DNA of 22,898 bases from NCBI GenBank assembly GCA_022759065.1, contig JAEMPZ010000170.1, forward strand, positions 1 to 22,898, in the 5' to 3' direction. Shown piece after piece: positions 137 to 10,681 of this stretch (the first letter of the stretch is position 1; every line of letters begins with the position of its first letter). The translations under genes and the position numbers were made by a program. The notes beneath the pieces are model-generated. The model did not search any database. It saw only the letters and a program-made list of their open reading frames with translations, and was not told the DNA's origin. Source of the DNA: Acidobacteriota bacterium. GTDB lineage: Bacteria; Acidobacteriota; UBA4820; DSQY01.

Positions 137-1042
137 ATGTCGCGATTGTCCATCAAGCTGTTCGGGCCTCTTTTGGTCGCAACCATAACGGTTATTGCCT
201 TTGGGGGAGTTTTGGCGTTCGCGCAAGTAAAGGTGAAGCCCAAGCCAGACCTGGGTTTTCTCGACCGTCTTGAGGGCCGTTTGGAAAGGGACCTGGACGT
301 GGCGCGCGCCGACCAGGCAAACAACAAGAAGACCCTGGATGATGCCAGGGCGCTCTTGTCCCGGGCACAGGCGTCCAAGAGTCCGGCCGCCGTTTCAGGC
401 GCCGAGCGGGCGGTGAGCCTTGCCGAGCAGGCCTTGCAGAAGAACCAGCTGCGCGAACAGCGGGTCCTGCGCGCCATCGGCTGGGTGCAAAAGCTGAAAG
501 AGAGCGCCGCCGCCGTTGGTCCAATCGGCGCCTTTATGCCGAGGGCGGAAGGGACCGTGGAGGTCGAGCCCAAGGATGGAGGGCCTCCTCGCAAGCTTTC
601 CGGCGACGTGCCACCAGTTGCAGGGCCTGGCGACACTGTGAAGACCGGCGCGGACGGCAGAGCGGACCTGCTCCTTCCAAACGGGAGCACTCTCAACCTG
701 GATGCCGCCTCCGCCGTCACGCTTCTTGATGATGGCCTCAATCTGCTATTCGGCCAGATCAGAGCCAAAGTCCAGCACGTCATGGGGCAAAGATTCGATG
801 TAAGAACGCCAACTGCCATCTGCGGCGTGCGCGGAACCGACTTCATCGTGCGCGAGAAGGCCGGGAAACCGGCGAGCCTTGTAGTCATCGAGGGGCAGGT
901 TGCATTCAGCGACATCAAAGGAATAAAGACGGTGCTAGTGAACGCGGGCCAGCAAAGTTATCTGCTGCCTGACGGGACGCCGGCTGAGCCAACAAGAGCG
1001 AATATCCATGACATGCCAAAGTGGTGGGAGGAGCAGCCATGA
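137..1042 (+). CDS. Exported FecR-domain protein with N-terminal coiled coil
   Basis: 301 aa. The start is the ATG at 137, preceded by GGAGG at 127-131 with good spacing; an in-frame TTG at 122 has no such site. Residues 1-29 look like a signal peptide or anchor ending in AFA before Gln30. Residues about 42-115 are charged and Ala/Leu-rich, a probable coiled coil (LDRLEGRLERDLDVARADQ). Residues about 135-265 match the FecR fold: a valued loop with GDTVKTGADGRADLLLPNGS, then the characteristic RTPTAICGVRGTDF segment. FecR domains in this arrangement are usually periplasmic or outer-membrane beta-rich modules. There is no FecI sigma factor or TonB receptor nearby, so classical iron-signalling is not supported here. 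The stop overlaps the next gene's start (ATGA), so the two are probably translated together. The domain call is firm; the role is not. Confidence 0.88.
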   Translation: MSRLSIKLFGPLLVATITVIAFGGVLAFAQVKVKPKPDLGFLDRLEGRLERDLDVARADQANNKKTLDDARALLSRAQASKSPAAVSGAERAVSLAEQALQKNQLREQRVLRAIGWVQKLKESAAAVGPIGAFMPRAEGTVEVEPKDGGPPRKLSGDVPPVAGPGDTVKTGADGRADLLLPNGSTLNLDAASAVTLLDDGLNLLFGQIRAKVQHVMGQRFDVRTPTAICGVRGTDFIVREKAGKPASLVVIEGQVAFSDIKGIKTVLVNAGQQSYLLPDGTPAEPTRANIHDMPKWWEEQP

Positions 1043-2265
1043 AGCTCGGCATGCCTGGATTTGCCATTTTTGCATTTCTGTGGGCACTGTTGGCGTCAGG
1101 CGCGCCCGCGATGGCGCAGACTCCTGAAATAGACTGCCAAGGAACCCTTCAGGCCTGGGCGATTGACCGAGTTACGCCGGGAATGCAGGAGTTCATGGCC
1201 ACGCATCACTGTTCTTGCCCGTGCAGCACCTGCGAGCCAAATTGCACAGCCATCGGCTCCGCCCCCGCCGCCCCGTGGTCGGGCAGCCACGTCACGCACG
1301 CCACCAGTTCACAGATGTTCGCCGCGCAGATGGTCGGCCAAATGATCGGCCAGATCATAGCGTCGGCTTTCGCCGAGCCCAAGGTTGACGAGGCCGCCCT
1401 CGCGGCGCAAAAGCAAAAAGAGGAAGAAGAACGGAAGAAGGCCGAGGCGGAAAAACAGAAGCTGCTCGCCGCTTGGAAAGCCAAGCAAGCTCAAGCGGAA
1501 AAGGATCGCCAGGCCGCGCAAGCACAGAACCAGCAGGCCGGGAACGATCTTCTCAACCATATGCAGACCTTCGACGGCACCGGGGCCTCTTCTCAAACGC
1601 TCGCCGTTGAACCGGTCGCGGGCGCGTTTGGAACAATGCAATTGAAGCCGATCACCGCCTCTTCAGGAGCTGAATTCAAACCGATGTCGCGCGCCAGCTA
1701 TGACACATCGGGCTTAAAGGATTGGCAGAGGGCGCTGTGCGCGGCCTACCTTTCCCAGAGCGCCCTTTCGGTCGTAAGGACCGATCCCGAACAGGCGCGC
1801 TATTTCGATGATCAGGCCGCGCTCGCGATGTCCGGCCAGCCGATCGAGGTGCGTTGCCAGTTCCCAAAAATGGCCGAGCCGCCCCAACCGCAAGCCGGTT
1901 CAAGCGCGTCAATGGACAAGACCGTGAAGGCCATCGAGTTTGTCCAGGCGCGCGCCAAGGACCTTCAAGACATCGAGACCAAGCTTCAAAAAGCCAAGTC
2001 CGAAAAGAGCGGGGCTGAATCTATGCGGAAGCAGGCCGAGGAAGCGCTGGCCCAGGCCCAAACGCAAAAAGCGCAGGCAAAGCCTGATGACGCGGCTTTG
2101 CTCGCTGAAATTGCGCGCAAAATCAACGAAGCGCAGTGCCAGCTCAACGACGCCAACAACAAGCTGGATGCCTTGTCCAAAGAGACCGATGAACTTTACC
2201 AGCAGAAAGAGTCCATCCGCCAGGAGCTTCAGAACGTGCAGCAGCAGGTACAGGGAGCGCAGTGA
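1039..2265 (+). CDS. Secreted Cys-cluster coiled-coil protein of unknown function
   Basis: 408 aa, no family recognised. The ATG at 1039 overlaps the FecR gene stop by 4 nt and follows GGGAGGAG; upstream in-frame GTGs are less likely. Residues 1-26 form a signal peptide (hydrophobic core, then PAMA-Q). Just after it lies a tight Cys motif, HHCSCPCSTCEPNC, with Cys at 58, 60, 62, 65 and 69, plus Cys33. Residues about 92-112 are a Met/Gly/Ile-rich hydrophobic stretch with spaced glycines (MVGQMIGQIIAS) that could be a membrane-interacting helix. Residues about 117-168 are a highly charged Lys/Glu/Ala/Gln coiled coil. The middle (about 170-295) is globular-looking, with two more Cys. Residues about 300-405 form a second long coiled coil rich in Gln and Lys. 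The Cys cluster could form disulfides in the periplasm or bind metal; neither is shown. Its coupling to the FecR protein suggests a shared complex. Confidence 0.8.
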   Translation: MKLGMPGFAIFAFLWALLASGAPAMAQTPEIDCQGTLQAWAIDRVTPGMQEFMATHHCSCPCSTCEPNCTAIGSAPAAPWSGSHVTHATSSQMFAAQMVGQMIGQIIASAFAEPKVDEAALAAQKQKEEEERKKAEAEKQKLLAAWKAKQAQAEKDRQAAQAQNQQAGNDLLNHMQTFDGTGASSQTLAVEPVAGAFGTMQLKPITASSGAEFKPMSRASYDTSGLKDWQRALCAAYLSQSALSVVRTDPEQARYFDDQAALAMSGQPIEVRCQFPKMAEPPQPQAGSSASMDKTVKAIEFVQARAKDLQDIETKLQKAKSEKSGAESMRKQAEEALAQAQTQKAQAKPDDAALLAEIARKINEAQCQLNDANNKLDALSKETDELYQQKESIRQELQNVQQQVQGAQ

Positions 2266-2270
2266 AAATT

Positions 2271-2334
2271 ATGAATTACGAATGTTGAAGGAAAAAGAAG
2301 TACCTCACTTCATCCTTCAACCTTCATACTTCAT
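2271..2334. repeat. Imperfect inverted repeat (21-nt arms) between coiled-coil and TPR-PDZ genes
   Basis: The arm at 2271-2291 and the reverse complement of 2314-2334 agree at 18 of 21 positions. A second nested perfect stem lies inside (2297-2301 pairs with 2307-2311 around a 5-nt loop). The right arm contains short tandem TTCATACT-type units. The interval 2266-2361 is distinctly AT-richer than the flanking genes and has no coding potential. It looks like a small mobile palindromic (REP/MITE-like) element or an intercistronic hairpin; without a run of T it is not a classical terminator. Confidence 0.6.
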
Positions 2335-2361
2335 ACTTACTCCATTGATCGGAGGGGTCAG

Positions 2362-4308
2362 ATGCAGAAGGTTCGCGCTATCAGCATCGTGGTTTTGTTG
2401 GTTGTCTTGGCCGCCGTGCCCGCCTTGGCTGGTTTCGGCCAGATAAACGCCACAACCAAGTGGCTCCAGGGAAAACAGGCCTTCCTTGCGGGGAACTACT
2501 CCCAGGCGATCGCCATCTGGACCGAGGAAAGCGTCGTCAAGTACAACGTGAGCGACCCAGGATATTACTACTGGCTCGCCAACGCATACGCGAGGACAGG
2601 GGCCAACGACAAGGCGGTCGAGACGGCCAAGAAGGGATTGGCTCTTGGGCCAAAGGCGGGGGATCCCAACGTAGTCGGCAATCTGCAGTGGGTCCTCGGC
2701 CAGGCTTACAACGGATTGAAGCAGTACGACTCGGCCCTGGCCGCTGCCCAGGCGGCCATAGCAGCCCAGCCACAGGATCCGGACAATTACAACCTCCTTG
2801 CCAATATCTACATGGACATGGAGAAATACGACGACGCCATGACCGCGGCCAAGAGAATGGTTGAGATGAAGCCTTCCCCGGCCGGCTACTCCACAATAGC
2901 GCTCTGCTGCTATAGGAAGGGCGATCTCGACAGCGCCCTGGATAACATTAACAAGGGGCTGGCGCTGGCGCCGCAGGACGCCAATCTCTTGATGGGCCAG
3001 GGGCGGATATACTTTGACAAGTTCCTCTTCGATCAGGCGGCATCCTCCTATTCAAAGGCTCTGGAGGCTAAAGCTCAAGACGCCCGAAGCTGGATCGCCC
3101 TTTGCAGATACTACCAGGGCAGATACGACGACGCGCTGGCTCAGGTGGACGCCGGCGCCACCAACGCCCAACAAGGGCAGGTGGGGCTTAACTTGAAGCT
3201 GAACGAGCATAACGCGATCGCGGTCGCCTCTGTAGAGCCTCAGAGCCCGGCGGCCGAAGCAGGCCTTCAGCCTGAAGATTGGATCATGGAGATCAACGGC
3301 GAGAAAACCTACAAAGGCATGGTTAACATCACCCCTCTCCTGACGGTTGACGAGGCTGCGGCCAAACTGCGCGGCGCGCCTGGAACGTCAGTTGAATTAA
3401 AGCTCTGGCGGTCATCTGGGAAGGTATTGCCGTTCAAGCGGACCGTCGTCCGAAAGGTCATTGTGCCTCCCTCCTCCGCTCTCGATTACGCCATTCAATC
3501 GCTTGCTTTGAGAGCAAAAGGCGATTCCGACAAAGCGCTCTCGATAGCCGAGAAGGCGGCCGGCCTGGATTCCTCCAGCGAATGGGCGCAGCTGGCCCTT
3601 GGTTTCGCCCTTTTGGACAAAGGCAGATACGATGAGGCTTTAACCGCATTACAGCACAACGCCACGGGGCTAACCATTCCATACAGGCAGTTGGGACGGG
3701 CAATCTGTTTCGCGAAGAAGGGCGATCTCAAGGGAGCCGCCGACATCTATTTTGGAGATATCGCCGGGATGGGTTCGCTGGCAAAAACGCTAGACGCCCG
3801 CTGCGTCCCCCTCTGGCATGAAAGGGGCGCCCTGCTTGGGTTATTGCAGCCAACAATTCACGGCCACCTTGATCAGGCAAAGAAGCTTGAAGCGGAGGGC
3901 AAATACGCCGATGCGCTGCCTGAATACGCGCAGGCGCTCCGCTTCGCGGCGGACGACAAAGAGGCCGCGGAGTTGCGCGGCGCCATCTTCGCCGCCGCAT
4001 CGAAGATGCCAACTCCTCCCGAGCTGCCGGAAGACGCGCGCGAGAGGGTGGTCAGGGGCGAGACGCTCATTAAGGACGGCGACCTTGCCGCGGCAGTAAA
4101 GGAATTCAACGAGGCTATCGGCCTGGCGCCCTATATGCCGAAGCTCTATTACAACGCGGCGCTTCTAAACGGCCAGCTCAAGCGGTACGCCGAGGCCATA
4201 AGGCTGATGAACATTTACTTGCAGGGCGCTCCCGACGCACCGGACGCCCGAGCAGCTAAGGACGAAATCATCAAATGGAAGCTCGAAATGGAACGGCAGG
4301 GGAAGTAA
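2362..4308 (+). CDS. Exported TPR protein with an internal PDZ domain
   Basis: 648 aa. The start ATG follows GGAGG at a normal distance. Residues 1-23 are a signal peptide (VPALA before GFGQ). Tandem TPR-like helical pairs fill about residues 30-265 (for example GKQAFLAGNYSQAIAIW and YYYWLANAYARTGANDKAV). At about 272-365 a PDZ-like domain interrupts the array: AVASVEPQSPAAEAGLQPED then WIMEINGEKTYKG are the typical carboxylate-loop and ligand-groove segments. No Ser/His/Asp protease domain is present, so it is not an HtrA or Ctp protease. TPRs resume from about 375 to the end. The last 100 residues are nearly identical to those of the next gene. It is likely a periplasmic or outer-membrane-associated scaffold with one peptide-binding (PDZ) and several TPR surfaces. 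The partner is unknown, and the FecR and Cys-cluster proteins are the obvious candidates. Confidence 0.87.
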   Translation: MQKVRAISIVVLLVVLAAVPALAGFGQINATTKWLQGKQAFLAGNYSQAIAIWTEESVVKYNVSDPGYYYWLANAYARTGANDKAVETAKKGLALGPKAGDPNVVGNLQWVLGQAYNGLKQYDSALAAAQAAIAAQPQDPDNYNLLANIYMDMEKYDDAMTAAKRMVEMKPSPAGYSTIALCCYRKGDLDSALDNINKGLALAPQDANLLMGQGRIYFDKFLFDQAASSYSKALEAKAQDARSWIALCRYYQGRYDDALAQVDAGATNAQQGQVGLNLKLNEHNAIAVASVEPQSPAAEAGLQPEDWIMEINGEKTYKGMVNITPLLTVDEAAAKLRGAPGTSVELKLWRSSGKVLPFKRTVVRKVIVPPSSALDYAIQSLALRAKGDSDKALSIAEKAAGLDSSSEWAQLALGFALLDKGRYDEALTALQHNATGLTIPYRQLGRAICFAKKGDLKGAADIYFGDIAGMGSLAKTLDARCVPLWHERGALLGLLQPTIHGHLDQAKKLEAEGKYADALPEYAQALRFAADDKEAAELRGAIFAAASKMPTPPELPEDARERVVRGETLIKDGDLAAAVKEFNEAIGLAPYMPKLYYNAALLNGQLKRYAEAIRLMNIYLQGAPDAPDARAAKDEIIKWKLEMERQGK

Positions 4309-4310
4309 AG

Positions 4311-4328
4311 GCTTTTCGCCATAAAAGC
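4311..4328 (+). other. Short intercistronic hairpin between the two TPR genes
   Basis: GCTTTT (4311-4316) pairs with AAAAGC (4323-4328) around a 6-nt loop, three bases after the first TPR gene stop. There is no T run after it, so termination is unlikely. It could stabilise the 3' end of a processed transcript or mean nothing. The following AAAGGAG is the ribosome-binding site of the next gene. Confidence 0.25.
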
Positions 4329-4344
4329 ACAAAGGAGTGAGCAA

Positions 4345-5988
4345 ATGAGAGCATTTCGTTTCTTGGCGTTCTTCCTGGCTGTTTCTCTCGCTTTTTCGGC
4401 CCCGGCCGCGGCGGGCTTCATTCAAGCCATGGCGGCTGTTCATTTCCAGCAGGGCCAAAAGGCTTTCAACGCGGGAGATTTCGACAAGGCAATCAAAATA
4501 TGGACCGAGCCCAGCGTGGAGAACGTCTACAGAAACGACCCTGGTTACTGGGACTGGCTGGCCAAGGCCTACCGCGGGGCGAAGCTATATGACAAAGCCC
4601 TCGCGATGGCACAAAAGGGGCTTAGCCTGCAACCTGCCGACCCAAACGTGGCCGCGGAGTTAAACGCCCTTTTAGCGCTCACCTATGAAGACATGGGCCA
4701 GTACCAACAGGCGATCGCGCCCGCTCAAGCCATAATAGCTGCGGCTCCGAAAGAACCAATGGCATACCTGATCCTCGGGAAAATCTACTTGGACATGAAC
4801 CGCTTCAGCGACGCCGAGACCGCGGCGCTGCGATCCCTCGAAATCAAGCCTACCGGCGACGGGCTGGCCGTTCTTGGTGTCGCGCACCTGCACATGGGGC
4901 TCATAAAGGGCGCGCTCCAGAACTTCACGATGGGGCTCACTTACGACCCGAAGAACGCCAACCTTCTAAGGGGCGTGGTGGCAGCCCAGTTGTCGCTATT
5001 CAACCTGAGCGCCGCGATGGAGGCGGCCAGAAACGCCGCGGCGGCGGGCGTCCCGGACGCGCCCTTATATGAAGGCTTCGTCCTTTACTATCAGGGTGAC
5101 ACCGCGGCCGCCTTGGACAAGATCAACGCCTTCATAGCATCCATTCCCAAGCTGGAGAAGGATGCGGCGGCTGATTTCGCGCTCAGGTCGTTTTTATACC
5201 GCGCCAAGGGCGAGAACGACAAGGCGCTAGAGGACGCCCAGCAGGCCGCCTCCTTTGACAAGAAGGCTTTCGCGTCTGGGTACGCCCTTGGATTTGCCCT
5301 GCTTGGAAAAGAGAGGCCGCAGGAAGCGCTGGCGGCCTTCGACGACCCATCGCTTGAGCCAGCGCTGATGCCGTTCACCGAGGCGCACCGGCAGCTTGGC
5401 CGGGCGCTTTGCTACGCCAAAATGGGGAACTTGGACAAGGCCGCTGACATCTATTTTGGCGTTGCTGGCCAGATAGACCAGCGCTACGCGCCCATTTGGC
5501 AGGACAAGGCGGCGCTGGCGGCGCAGTTCGCGCCATCTTTGCAACAACACCTTGAACAAGCCAGAAAGTTAGAGGCCGATGGCAAGTACGCCGATTGCCT
5601 CCGGGAATATGCCCAGGCTATGAGGTTTGCCGACGGAAAACAGGCCGAGGATATTCGCGCCGCGAGTTTTGCCGAGGCCGCAAAAATGCCGACGCCTCCT
5701 GAACTTCCCGAAGACGCCCGGCGACGCGTCGTCAGGGGCGAAGCGCTCATAAAGGACGGCGACCTCGCCTCCGCCGTGGCCGAGTTCAACGACGCGCTGC
5801 GCCTCGCGCCCTACATGCCCAAGCTCTACTACAACGCCGCCCTATTGAACGGACAGCTCAAGAAGTACCCGGAAGCGATCAGGCTCATGAACATCTACCT
5901 CCAGGGCGCGCCCGACGCCCCCGACGCCAGAGCCGCCAAGGATGAAATCATAAAGTGGGAGCTGGAAATCGAGCGGCAGGGGAAGTGA
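4345..5988 (+). CDS. Exported TPR protein, PDZ-less paralogue of the preceding gene
   Basis: 547 aa. The ATG follows AAAGGAG with a 7-nt gap. Residues 1-23 are a signal peptide (SAPAAA before GF), so the mature N-terminus resembles that of the preceding protein (GFIQ against GFGQ). TPR-like pairs run through almost the whole chain (FQQGQKAFNAGDFDKAIKIW, DPGYWDWLAKAYRGAKLYDK and so on). It aligns with the preceding protein along its length except that the PDZ segment is missing, which accounts for the 101-residue size difference. The C-terminal 100 residues (nt 5686-5985) are 89 percent identical to the paralogue by direct count. The 36-nt spacing implies one transcript. It arose by tandem duplication, with PDZ loss or gain in one copy. 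Function unknown; probably a second scaffold subunit of the same envelope assembly. Confidence 0.86.
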   Translation: MRAFRFLAFFLAVSLAFSAPAAAGFIQAMAAVHFQQGQKAFNAGDFDKAIKIWTEPSVENVYRNDPGYWDWLAKAYRGAKLYDKALAMAQKGLSLQPADPNVAAELNALLALTYEDMGQYQQAIAPAQAIIAAAPKEPMAYLILGKIYLDMNRFSDAETAALRSLEIKPTGDGLAVLGVAHLHMGLIKGALQNFTMGLTYDPKNANLLRGVVAAQLSLFNLSAAMEAARNAAAAGVPDAPLYEGFVLYYQGDTAAALDKINAFIASIPKLEKDAAADFALRSFLYRAKGENDKALEDAQQAASFDKKAFASGYALGFALLGKERPQEALAAFDDPSLEPALMPFTEAHRQLGRALCYAKMGNLDKAADIYFGVAGQIDQRYAPIWQDKAALAAQFAPSLQQHLEQARKLEADGKYADCLREYAQAMRFADGKQAEDIRAASFAEAAKMPTPPELPEDARRRVVRGEALIKDGDLASAVAEFNDALRLAPYMPKLYYNAALLNGQLKKYPEAIRLMNIYLQGAPDAPDARAAKDEIIKWELEIERQGK

Positions 5989-6075: not shown

Positions 6076-6162
6076 TGGTGCCGAAGCCGGGACTCGAACC
6101 CGGAAGGCCTTGCGACCGGGGGATTTTGAGTCCCCTGCGTCTGCCAATTCCGCCACTTCGGC
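6076..6162 (-). tRNA. tRNA-Leu (anticodon CAA)
   Basis: On the minus strand an 87-nt gene begins GCCGAAG, pairing with the 3' CUUCGGC acceptor strand, followed by discriminator A and an encoded CCA. The D-arm region GCGGAATTGGCAGACGC, anticodon stem GGGGA/TCCCC around the loop CTCAAAA (anticodon CAA, reads UUG), a long variable arm typical of class II tRNAs, and the T-arm with GTTCGAGTC are all visible. It lies 42 nt downstream of the PP2C gene on the same strand, so it could be co-transcribed or have its own promoter. Confidence 0.97.
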
Positions 6163-7748: not shown

Positions 7749-8951
7749 CTACTTGCCCTTCTTGTAATTGACCTTCTTTGGGGTATGGCGCAGATCGTAT
7801 ATTTTGCGCGCCTCGCGCCTTATGAGGTCTGAAACATTTTTGTCCCTTACCAAGTTCTTGATGTCAAAGTCGTTCAGCCTCGAAACCAGTGGCATGGCAA
7901 TGCCCAGCGGCGTCTTGGGGTTGGTTACCAGGCCGTGAATCACCGCGTACCGCTTCATCCACTCCCCGTTCCTGGCTATCTTCCTGAGCAATTCCTCCGG
8001 CAGGTTGCGCATCTTGGCGATGGCTTCAACCTCTCCATCGGTCAGTTTGGGCGAATCCATCACGGCCTCTTGGACCACCTTGTTGCTGTCCCGCATCAAA
8101 AGAGTGCGCGCCTCTTTGTCACCCCGAACGGCGAGAGAAATCTTTTCTGGGACGCTCATCGTCAGGAGCTTTTCGTACAGAGTCCTGCGCTCTTCCTCGG
8201 AAGCAGCCTCCTCTTCCGCTTCGACGGCTTCAGCCGTCGCCGCCTGAGGCCCGGCCGGCAAAGCGGCGCCTGGCCTTGTGAGCGGGGCCGGCTCTTTAGA
8301 AACTTCTTCCGCCATTCGCTGCGGCGGGAGCTGGACGGAGGACGTTTTTTGGGGGGCCGCAGCGACCGGTGGCCCGGCATCATGGGCAGGCGCGAATTCG
8401 CCTCCGGCGTGGCCAATGGCCAATCCAAACCTCTCCCGCAAAAGCTTGGGGATCGCCGAATGGCCCCTGAAAAACTGCTCCGCCAGGTCGAAAAGGCGGC
8501 GGGCTTGGCTCTGAGAAACCGCCGCGTTTTGCAGCATGGCAACGACTATGTCAGGCTGGGCCAGCAGCCTGTTTTGCAGGTCCATAATCTGGTCAAGCAC
8601 CTGCCCGCGCGCCGTCCCGGCCAGGTGAATCAACGCCTCATCGGGCACCGCTTTGTTCCGCAAGAGGCTTTCGGCCAGATCCGGCGCGCGCGCCAGGACT
8701 TTGGAGGCAAAATCAAAAAACTCCGGGCGAAATGCTGCTTCGGGCAGAATTGCGCGCCACTCATTACTTGTGACGGCTGCCAGATTTTCACGGCAGGCGG
8801 CGCGGACTGCCGGATCCTCGTCGTTGCGGAGGCAGGTCCAAAGCTCGATCTGGTCCTCCCGCGGGATTGGCAGCAAGCCCTGAGCCGCCGTCAGGCGGAC
8901 GCTGGCCGGTACCTCTCCAGAGAGAACGCGTTCAACGACCGGATGGCTCAC
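7749..8951 (-). CDS. Helical-repeat (HEAT-like) protein carrying a shared C-terminal module
   Basis: 400 aa, starting at GTG 8951 with GGGAG six nt upstream. No signal peptide or membrane segment. The N-terminal half is made of HEAT/ARM-like helices (VRLTAAQGLLPI; DEDPAVRAACRENLAAV). The middle (about 195-255) is a low-complexity Ala/Pro/Glu linker (AEAVEAEEEAASEEE). Residues about 299-388 form a module that also occurs twice in the protein encoded at 9902-10681; conserved features are a central Leu-Pro, an aromatic W, NPKTPLGIA and LNDFDIKNLVRD. The tail is basic (KKVNYKKGK). It is separated from the RodZ-like gene by a 156-nt repeat-bearing gap, so it may have its own promoter, though I see no convincing one. 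Likely a cytosolic protein-interaction scaffold; no enzymatic motif is visible. Confidence 0.82.
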   Translation of the reverse strand: MSHPVVERVLSGEVPASVRLTAAQGLLPIPREDQIELWTCLRNDEDPAVRAACRENLAAVTSNEWRAILPEAAFRPEFFDFASKVLARAPDLAESLLRNKAVPDEALIHLAGTARGQVLDQIMDLQNRLLAQPDIVVAMLQNAAVSQSQARRLFDLAEQFFRGHSAIPKLLRERFGLAIGHAGGEFAPAHDAGPPVAAAPQKTSSVQLPPQRMAEEVSKEPAPLTRPGAALPAGPQAATAEAVEAEEEAASEEERRTLYEKLLTMSVPEKISLAVRGDKEARTLLMRDSNKVVQEAVMDSPKLTDGEVEAIAKMRNLPEELLRKIARNGEWMKRYAVIHGLVTNPKTPLGIAMPLVSRLNDFDIKNLVRDKNVSDLIRREARKIYDLRHTPKKVNYKKGK

Positions 8952-9107: not shown

Positions 9108-9905
9108 TCACCCATTCGCGGCCACCTTTCCACTTCCATCTGAAGATTCAGGCACCTTCATGTCCTTGACCACCGTCCCAGGCTTGCCTGGCAGCGCGAC
9201 CGGCTTCTTGTCATAGAAGAGCCTCACCATGGAAGCGTCTCCCACAGTCACGCGAAAAGCGCTCCCTTCAAAGGCCACCCGTTCTCCTGCCTTCATCTGT
9301 CTATAGACGAGGCGCTCCTGGCCACGGTAGACCTCGACCCAACAGGGGCCCGAAGTCTCAAGCGAGAGTCCCATCGCAACCGTTTCCGCGGGCTCGGCCG
9401 CCTTCTCGGCGGCCGCCTTCTCTGGCACCACGGGCGTTTCATTCGTCAAAGGCGGGGAGGGAACCTCTTCAGAATGGGACGCGCCTGCCGGGGCGGATTG
9501 TTGCGGCTCGACCGAAGCGCTGCCACTACCCATATTCAGGTAAATGACCAGGGCGGCCCCAGCCACCACGGCGCCGGCCAGCCCGGCGGCCACAAGCGTC
9601 AAGCTTATGCCCTTGCGTGGCGAAGCAGCCGGCTTGGCCGCCAAACCGCCGGCTTCATGCGCGGGACAACTTGCCTCATAAGCCGAGAGAAGAACGGATG
9701 GCCCGATTCCGAGGTGCTGCGCTATCGCTTTCAAATAGCCGGTGACGAACACGCGCGCCGGCAGAGCCTCCCACCGCTCGGCTTCAATGGCCTCAAGAAA
9801 GACACGCCTCACCTTCGTAGCTTGTGAAAGCTCCTCAATGCCTATGCCCCTGGCTTCCCTTTCGCGGCGAAGCACCGAGCCGATTCCTTCTTCCTTTACA
9901 GTCAT
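9108..9905 (-). CDS. RodZ-like HTH and single-pass membrane protein
   Basis: 265 aa, ATG at 9905 overlapping the upstream gene by 4 nt (ATGA). Residues about 6-75 are the xenobiotic-response-type HTH_25 domain typical of RodZ (GSVLRREREARGIGIEELSQ, then ARVFVTGYLKAIAQHLGI). A positively charged spacer leads to a transmembrane helix at about 98-120 (LVAAGLAGAVVAGAALVIYL). A Pro/Ala/Glu linker follows, then a periplasmic DUF4115-like beta domain (PCWVEVYRGQERLVYRQMK to about 255). RodZ couples cytoplasmic MreB filaments to the envelope in rods. No mreB, pbp2 or rodA lies in the window; instead its neighbours are two helical-repeat proteins. RodZ-like proteins with this layout also occur as general cytoskeletal or pole-associated factors, so a strict rodZ name is not given. 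Confidence 0.88.
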   Translation of the reverse strand: MTVKEEGIGSVLRREREARGIGIEELSQATKVRRVFLEAIEAERWEALPARVFVTGYLKAIAQHLGIGPSVLLSAYEASCPAHEAGGLAAKPAASPRKGISLTLVAAGLAGAVVAGAALVIYLNMGSGSASVEPQQSAPAGASHSEEVPSPPLTNETPVVPEKAAAEKAAEPAETVAMGLSLETSGPCWVEVYRGQERLVYRQMKAGERVAFEGSAFRVTVGDASMVRLFYDKKPVALPGKPGTVVKDMKVPESSDGSGKVAANG

Positions 9906-10681
9906 CGTTCTCCCCCGAGCCTCGCCTGAATCATCCGGCGCACCGCGGCCGGGACCTTGGGATCGTGGAGGAGGCTCTTCAGATCCTGGGCATTCAATTG
10001 CGTAATGAACGGGATGACCGCCGAAATCGGAGTGCTTCCGTTGCGGAGCAGGGCGACTCTCACTTCTTTGCGCGTTGACCATTTTGGGTCTCTCGCGATT
10101 ACCTCGAGCACCGGGCCGGGCGTGCGGCTCTGGTTGATGATGAAAAGCGCATCCTCCTCGACGAGCCTTGGGTTCTCAAGAAGCGCGGCCGTGACGCGCG
10201 CCTCCTTCTCAAGCCTAAGCGCCTTTAAAATTTGGCCTCCCGCGATTCTCGCCAGGAGAACCTTTTCTCCGACCGCGAGCGCGGGGAGCCGCTGGAAGAG
10301 CACCGACTCGGCCATGTGGCGCACTTCGGTTGCCAGGCGAAAATTCATCGTTACAAAGTTCAGGTCGCGCCAGAAGAGAAATTTCACGAAATTCATGGCC
10401 TGGGGCAAGGGCGTACGGGGATTGTTGACCAGATAAAATTGAACCCGGGGCGACCTGATCCACCTCGTTTTCGTGACGCCAGCAAGGAATTCCCCCGGCA
10501 GGTCCTGGCGCTCCAGAAGCTTCAATACGTGCTTCTCGTCCACGTGGGGATGGTCCAGAAGCAGGCCCAAATCCCCTCCGGAAAGCGCCGGCAAGGCAGC
10601 CCAAAGTTCGTCTGACGTCGCGTCCGAGCGGATCATTCTTCTTCGCAGCCTTCCCATCCGGAAGATCCGGATGGAGACCAT
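9902..10681 (-). CDS. Helical-repeat protein with two copies of the shared module
   Basis: 259 aa. The ATG at 10681 is preceded by GAGGG and lies 9 nt after the deaminase stop; internal ATGs at 10657 and 10636 are possible since recognisable sequence begins near residue 20. Two copies of an about 88-residue all-helical module fill it: residues about 43-129 (with NNPRTPLPQAMNFVKFLFWRD) and about 169-259 (with NGSTPISAVIPFITQLNAQD). Both align with residues 299-388 of the protein at 7749-8951. Conserved positions are an opening acidic-Pro pair, a Leu/Thr-Pro, Trp, Asn-x-x-Thr-Pro and Asp-Leu before the last helix. No signal peptide or membrane segment. Translationally coupled to the RodZ-like gene, suggesting it is its cytoplasmic partner. 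No named family is claimed. Confidence 0.82.
   Translation of the reverse strand: MVSIRIFRMGRLRRRMIRSDATSDELWAALPALSGGDLGLLLDHPHVDEKHVLKLLERQDLPGEFLAGVTKTRWIRSPRVQFYLVNNPRTPLPQAMNFVKFLFWRDLNFVTMNFRLATEVRHMAESVLFQRLPALAVGEKVLLARIAGGQILKALRLEKEARVTAALLENPRLVEEDALFIINQSRTPGPVLEVIARDPKWSTRKEVRVALLRNGSTPISAVIPFITQLNAQDLKSLLHDPKVPAAVRRMIQARLGGER

What the first reader, a model, noticed from the sequence alone, without database searches (positions are those of the whole stretch)
137..5988. Four-gene exported FecR / Cys-cluster / TPR-PDZ / TPR cassette with no known reference system
All four products carry a signal peptide or N-terminal anchor, are closely packed on one strand, and combine a FecR-type beta domain, long coiled coils, a PDZ peptide-binding domain and TPR arrays. 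There is no enzyme, TonB receptor, sigma factor or secretion ATPase with them. That composition fits a periplasmic or outer-membrane scaffold or fibre assembly rather than iron signalling. I know of no named system with this set.
Basis: partly seen in the sequence, partly recalled or inferred. Interest (0 to 1): 0.72.

Follow-up and report, generated by a model that had tools for sequence, protein, structure and literature searches.

The report
Unnamed exported Cys-coil/TPR/FecR gene cassette
Neighbouring genes for exported proteins, one of them matching no known protein family, recur together in three distantly related groups of bacteria, which points to an undescribed envelope or secreted protein assembly whose job is still unknown.

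Summary
Their grouping recurs. The core is a Cys-rich/helical protein with no family match (P0002) beside a TPR protein (P0003), often with a FecR protein (P0001). Of 46 loci mapped, 26 hold the helical Cys protein: 24 have a TPR neighbour, 18 a FecR-type gene, 16 both. Of 31 loci returned by Cys-profile searches, 29 have the TPR neighbour against 4.1 expected; 22 of 24 after removing loci tied to the TPR profile. In 21 genomes, 9 of 10 full-length FecR-type genes lie at the Cys gene; 3 of 4 outside the profile's own rows.

Hosts: the window's phylum, a Nitrospirae and a Deltaproteobacteria group; a Chloroflexi case is a shared contig.

Corrections: the fourth gene is a PDZ-less TPR paralogue, rare elsewhere. 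Cys-domain relatives carry other C-termini. P0001's coil fails my heptad test.

Best reading: an exported modular assembly on a Cys-protein/TPR pair. Linkage is shown; export, binding and function are inferred. No library or paper search here named it. The contig starts at base 1.

The parts
137..1042 (+). Exported (by reading) FecR protein P0001; FecR domain at residues 166-255, C-terminal WWE motif found in 6 of 8 aligned rows
   Evidence: 55% identical relative in G192
1039..2265 (+). Exported (by reading) Cys-domain/helical protein P0002, no known family; Cys columns 33, 58, 60, 69, 234, 273 hold Cys in 10/10, 9/10, 10/10, 9/9, 11/12 and 11/12 rows
2362..4308 (+). Exported (by reading) TPR-PDZ-TPR protein P0003, with a well conserved C-terminal TPR segment of about 105 residues
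4345..5988 (+). Exported (by reading) TPR protein P0004 without PDZ, paralogue of P0003; accessory

Best explanation
The cassette encodes a Sec-exported protein assembly of the cell envelope. Its core is a pair: a Cys-domain protein with a long antiparallel helical pair (arms of about 55-60 residues in the model), and a TPR superhelix partner. Shown: the pair is co-encoded and its trees agree, with cross-phylum groupings that suggest joint transfer. Inferred: export; docking of the N-terminal disulfide-rich domain on the conserved C-terminal TPR segment (the parts most often kept when the rest of the two genes differs); a further client held by PDZ or ankyrin repeats; and attachment of the FecR protein through its N-terminal segment (kept when its beta domain is exchanged), presenting a beta domain that resembles part of an adhesin retention domain. 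The whole would work as a modular periplasmic or surface scaffold. P0004 would be a second, PDZ-less adaptor.
For: Same order FecR-Cys-TPR in G192 of another family, 55/40/46% identity. Of 12 loci fetched by the TPR alignment, 11 have a Cys-family gene upstream in the same run (10 of 11 without duplicate L050; in L051 it is the papain-like type, in L052 another TPR gene stands between). 24/26, 18/26 and 16/26 linkage. 29 of 31 against 4.1 expected, or 22 of 24 against about 2.8 without loci tied to the TPR profile. 9 of 10 full-length FecR-type genes at the Cys gene, 3 of 4 outside profile rows, plus 5 of 5 that match only by the N-terminal segment. Cys and TPR distances agree on 20 loci, r 0.758, 0 of 5000 permutations. 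Cys 234 and 273 are lost together in 1 of 12 rows and present in the other 11, as expected of a disulfide. FecR profile matches chain 5ix9, E 1e-5.
Against: No interaction was predicted or measured. FecR is missing from the cassette in 8 of 26 loci and TPR in 2 of 26. In the phylum sample 11 of 396 genomes have a strong TPR match; at the loci fetched a Cys-family gene is beside it in 7, none was seen in G223, G231 or G255, and G001's contig ends there, so the TPR segment is not specific to the Cys domain. FecR distances agree weakly with Cys (r 0.30, 0.018 of permutations) and TPR (r 0.47, 0.0006); these tests do not remove species relatedness. The profiles include several of the loci counted. 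P0001 alone has no PDB match at 0.1 and no retention_LapA match. The model is partial: mean pLDDT 66.7, pTM 0.33. Heptad tests fail for P0001 and P0005.
Confidence: 0.45

Rival explanations
1. Envelope assembly or quality control: the TPR-PDZ protein is a periplasmic chaperone or assembly factor whose client is the Cys/helical protein, with the FecR protein a second client. The product is a secreted fibre or structural protein, not a standing complex.
For: The Cys protein nearly always has the TPR gene beside it (29 of 31) while TPR relatives occur without it, the asymmetry expected of chaperone and client. The partners vary in PDZ and ankyrin content.
Against: Cys and TPR distances agree closely, as for a complex; no protease or isomerase domain among the Pfam matches shown for the TPR proteins scanned.
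Confidence: 0.22
2. Polymorphic secreted effectors with TPR/ankyrin immunity or carrier proteins; the helical form in the window is one variant.
For: The N-terminal Cys domain is joined to different C-termini: helical (window type), papain-like (L041, L043, L044), lipase-like (L046, L048) and another helical type (L137, L138) (readings mine). TPR/ankyrin neighbours, two short TPR genes in L048.
Against: The window type has no enzyme motif that I could see; the partners have their own signal peptides by reading; no Pfam, NCBIfam, PADLOC or PDB match for the C-termini tested.
Confidence: 0.1
3. A signalling cassette: FecR as periplasmic sensor coupled to a receptor or cyclase encoded upstream or elsewhere.
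For: FecR domain. In G518 (L126) the Cys gene lies about 30 nt from a TPR-CHAT gene that follows FecR-TPR, DUF4384 and CHASE2-cyclase genes. LysM-FecR/CHASE2 kinase operons are described (PMC5192318, passages seen).
Against: Only 1 of 47 loci compared by phmmer shows the CHASE2, cyclase, CHAT or DUF4384 genes at 1e-4. P0001 has no anti-sigma match; no sigma factor or TonB receptor in the window ORFs scanned.
Confidence: 0.12
4. Loosely linked envelope genes, with adjacency inherited from a common ancestor and no joint function.
For: Gene order varies.
Against: Membership is kept while order varies across three phyla, and both Cys and TPR trees join loci from different phyla (support values were not examined).
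Confidence: 0.04

Closest known systems
LysM-FecR / CHASE2 histidine kinase operons (PMC5192318, passages seen)
   Same: Exported FecR-domain protein in a small envelope operon, not an ECF anti-sigma factor
   Different: Theirs has a response regulator, LysM, a CHASE2 kinase and DUF4136; P0001 has no LysM match, and the Cys and TPR-PDZ genes have no counterpart in the passages seen
Retention domain of LapA-type RTX adhesins (5ix9, NF033682; PMC12077191, passages seen)
   Same: 72 positions of the FecR profile align with 5ix9, E 1e-5; relative L054 weakly matches retention_LapA, 17.7 bits against a cut-off of 50
   Different: P0001 alone matches neither; no adhesin or type I secretion genes among the window ORFs scanned. 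That 5ix9 is the adhesin's retention region is recalled
FecR anti-sigma regulators
   Same: PF04773 domain
   Different: No anti-sigma domain match; no sigma factor or TonB receptor in the window ORFs scanned
TPR proteins MamA, Tgl, GltE, PrsT (NCBIfam)
   Same: TPR array similarity
   Different: All below curated cut-offs (for example MamA 94 bits against 200)
Leptospira FecR proteins LipL45, Lsa33
   Same: FecR-domain similarity, E 5e-12 and 4e-12
   Different: Far below cut-offs (46 bits against 350 and 420)

Membership tests
FecR anti-sigma / FecA-FecI iron signalling | FecR domain PF04773 | tested here: met
   E 2.8e-17
FecR anti-sigma / FecA-FecI iron signalling | N-terminal cytoplasmic anti-sigma domain | tested here: not met
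   PF04773 is the only Pfam match of P0001 at E 0.1; N-terminus reads as a signal peptide
FecR anti-sigma / FecA-FecI iron signalling | Adjacent ECF sigma factor and TonB receptor | tested here: inconclusive
   None in the window ORFs scanned, but the contig starts at base 1
LysM-FecR / CHASE2 operon | LysM and FecR in one protein | tested here: not met
   No LysM match in P0001
LysM-FecR / CHASE2 operon | CHASE2 sensor gene adjacent | tested here: inconclusive
   None in the window ORFs scanned, upstream unseen; CHASE2 in 1 of 47 loci compared, L126
LapA-type retention module | NCBIfam NF033682 over cut-off | tested here: not met
   P0001 no hit at 0.001; L039 relative no hit, L054 relative 17.7 bits against 50
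Known anti-phage defence systems | Match to a PADLOC model | tested here: not met
   0 matches for 8 proteins at 0.001
Selenoproteins (relative L052 only) | In-frame TGA at a conserved Cys, downstream hairpin with G in a small apical loop, SelB in the genome | tested here: inconclusive
   TGA at the Cys 69 position; hairpin loop GGUCAG, but 13 of 200 shuffles fold as well; SelB over cut-off in G396; loop feature from PMC1088965 passages

The most novel reading that the evidence does not exclude
An undescribed modular export-and-display system of bacterial envelopes. A disulfide-rich adaptor domain pairs with a TPR carrier, and each side swaps its remaining parts: cargo (helical, papain-like, lipase-like ends) on the adaptor, PDZ or ankyrin readers on the carrier, and FecR or other heads on the accessory protein. 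It has spread between phyla.
Probability: 0.3. Interest if true: 0.75.

Novelty: categorically new. Interest (0 to 1): 0.56.

Why it matters
A gene set kept together across three phyla, with a core protein outside the family libraries searched, marks a function that these largely metagenome-known bacteria keep and that I could not find named. It gives a defined target (one protein pair, testable in E. coli periplasm) and a domain signature for finding more members.

Tried and rejected
Rejected: the Chloroflexi occurrence. L049 (Acidobacteria MAG) and L050 (Chloroflexi MAG) are 100% identical over 4835 bases, and 0 of the other 200 genomes sampled in that phylum match. L141, a different contig of the same suspect genome G403, stays in the counts of 46 and 26. 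Rejected: the fourth gene as part of the general cassette. I first took P0004 for a recent copy of P0003; the tree groups P0004 with G192's single TPR gene (99/97), so the duplication may be older. Uninformative: the FecR part of the control (12 of 31 observed, 8.2 expected, since placements in a short locus fall near the same gene); one search replaced it.

Led nowhere: the genome-contig scan with P0002 alone; PDB searches with the Cys and papain-like profiles and with P0001 alone; PHROGs and PADLOC. Paper searches listed nothing that describes the cassette by title or start of abstract; I looked into three papers only, by passages (PMC1088965, PMC12077191, PMC5192318). No model of P0001 and no fold search was obtained.

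Dropped rows: 20 of the 46 loci hold no helical-type Cys gene. L050, L051, L056 and L058 were left out as duplicates of L049, L045, L026 and L042. Of 17 Nitrospirae-phylum genomes matched, 8 were not fetched; so 31 of 39 Cys-search loci (window excluded) entered. Three of the 31 (L053, L054, L057) had first been found through the TPR alignment and four (L026, L039, L042, L045) supplied rows of the TPR profile; the other 24 give 22 of 24, with about 2.8 expected when I add up the printed values. One search was given 21 of the 26 genomes with helical-type Cys genes (not G396, G399, G402, G403, G604). One search used 20 of the 26 loci. The N-terminal FecR-segment profile contains L053 and L057, so their match to it is by construction. 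L131 has two Cys genes and was counted once.
Full report
WHAT IS THERE. The window is the start of contig C1 of a 1.91 Mb, 86.5% complete genome, G000. Four + strand genes fill 137-5988: FecR (P0001), Cys/helical (P0002), TPR-PDZ (P0003) and TPR (P0004). A tRNA-Leu on the other strand follows at 6076-6162. Further on are a PP2C phosphatase, RodZ, adenosine deaminase, valyl-tRNA synthetase, a response regulator, pyruvate:ferredoxin oxidoreductase, a dihydroorotate dehydrogenase-like protein and ScpA; I see no tie to the cassette. P0002 has no Pfam or NCBIfam match over cut-off, only weak coiled-coil similarity, and no PHROGs or PADLOC match.

RECURRENCE. In 100 relatives P0002 finds one other genome, G078, and P0001's best foreign hit is on the same contig. 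That locus (L026) has Cys, TPR-PDZ and FecR genes in a row. A two-row profile finds 11 of 396 genomes in the phylum, G000 included. In G192, of a different family, the order is FecR-Cys-TPR as in the window, at 55, 40 and 46% identity. A scan of GTDB species genomes with the TPR-PDZ alignment gave 12 loci; 11 have a Cys-family gene upstream in the same run, of the papain-like type in L051. Record titles name Acidobacteria/Aminicenantes, Deltaproteobacteria, Nitrospirae/Thermodesulfovibrio and one Chloroflexi; the last is an identical contig shared with an Acidobacteria MAG. Profile searches at 1e-10 matched 17 of 245 genomes in the Thermodesulfovibrio record's phylum, 11 of 297 in the Deltaproteobacteria record's phylum and only the suspect genome among 201 in the Chloroflexi-labelled one. 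G078, G043 and G386 have the contig lengths of Aminicenantes records; that GTDB puts these in Acidobacteriota is recalled.

COUNTS. Of 46 loci mapped, 26 hold the helical-type Cys gene (window and the suspect genome's L141 included). 24 have a TPR gene next to it (not L136, L139), 18 a FecR or FecR-N-terminal-type gene in the cassette, and 16 both: order FecR-Cys-TPR in 6, Cys-TPR-FecR in 9, FecR divergent in 1. The cleaner figure is: 31 loci returned by Cys-profile searches, 29 with a same-strand TPR gene within 300 nt, against 4.1 for random placement in the same loci. Setting aside the 7 loci first found through, or contributing to, the TPR profile leaves 22 of 24. The FecR part of that control was uninformative (12 against 8.2). 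In 21 Cys-bearing genomes, 10 full-length FecR-type genes were found: 9 at the Cys gene, and one (G671, L142) near what reads as a ribosomal protein gene. Six of the 10 are rows of the profile; of the other 4, 3 lie at the Cys gene. Five more matches cover only the N-terminal segment and all lie at a Cys gene. Five matches to the FecR domain part lie elsewhere. Three genomes had none at 1e-6.

AGAINST. Seen from the TPR side the link is looser: 11 of 396 phylum genomes have a strong match; at the loci fetched 7 have a Cys-family gene beside it, 3 showed none (G223, G231, G255), and G001's contig ends there.

THE FOURTH GENE. P0003 and P0004 are 88% identical over the last 105 residues and 45% elsewhere; the congener G001 has the same pair (84% and 30%). 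G043 has its own pair, the second copy without PDZ, and G396 two PDZ-bearing copies. The tree groups P0004 with its G001 partner and then G192's single gene, so the duplication may predate the genus. A second TPR gene stands in the run in 4 of 24 helical-type loci.

ANATOMY. Cys columns 33, 58, 60, 69, 234 and 273 hold Cys in 10/10, 9/10, 10/10, 9/9, 11/12 and 11/12 rows; the last two are both missing in L059. The AlphaFold model (mean pLDDT 66.7, pTM 0.33) shows a short strand pair at 56-59/68-71, a helix at 118-178, two helices at 228-264, and an antiparallel helical pair 286-346/352-406. FecR proteins share an N-terminal segment that reads as helical, and a C-terminal WWE motif in 6 of 8 rows. 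In L053 and L057 the FecR domain is replaced by a segment without Pfam match. Part of the FecR profile matches 5ix9 at 1e-5, but P0001 alone does not.

DOMAIN SWAPPING. The N-terminal Cys domain also heads proteins with papain-like motifs (L041, L043, L044), lipase-like motifs (L046, L048) and another helical-looking C-terminus (L137, L138). Two papain-like proteins in L045 have a different N-terminus. These names are my motif readings; the family and PDB searches made give no support. In L041, L043, L044, L046, L047 and L048 the TPR or TPR-ankyrin neighbour matches only the C-terminal part of P0003/P0004, while in L045 it is a full TPR-PDZ protein.

CO-INHERITANCE. Cys and TPR distances of 20 loci agree (r 0.758, 0 of 5000 permutations). 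Both trees join L042 (Aminicenantes) with L130 (Deltaproteobacteria-type phylum), and L059 (Thermodesulfovibrio) with L132-L134, which suggests transfer of the pair between phyla; branch support was not examined, and MAG contamination could mimic single cases. FecR agrees less: r 0.30 with Cys and 0.47 with TPR on 15 loci.

MECHANISM AND VERDICT. Shown: linkage, agreement of trees, conserved Cys, a partial helical model. Inferred: export, a Cys-domain/TPR contact, a scaffold role. I give the scaffold reading 0.45, chaperone-client 0.22, signalling 0.12, polymorphic effectors 0.10; the facts mended on re-checking did not change these odds. The cassette is real and unnamed in what I could search; its function is open.

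Noticed in passing
L052 716-718 (genome G396): The Cys-protein gene has an in-frame TGA exactly where relatives have the fourth conserved Cys (69). The genome encodes SelB over cut-off and a hairpin with loop GGUCAG follows, though 13 of 200 shuffles fold as well; 6 of 186 one-step nonsense changes in the gene fall on its remaining Cys codons. Selenocysteine or a sequencing error.
   Followed up: partly
L126 521-9148 (genome G518): The Cys gene lies directly beside a FecR-TPR, DUF4384, CHASE2-cyclase, TPR-CHAT gene run, a possible link to signalling.
   Followed up: partly
L049 and L050: A 4835-base stretch is 100% identical in MAGs labelled Acidobacteria and Chloroflexi, which suggests cross-bin contamination in public genomes.
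   Followed up: yes
L131 1194-8909 (genome G775): Run of Cys, FecR-N-terminal-type and TPR genes with two Cys genes; one has an in-frame TAG.
   Followed up: no
window 9902-10636 and 7749-8951, - strand: Two ORFs near the RodZ gene without a Pfam match.
   Followed up: no
L026 3943-7014, + strand: A gene convergent with the cassette in G078 that reads as a Ser/Thr kinase with TPRs; the kinase reading is from sequence only.
   Followed up: no
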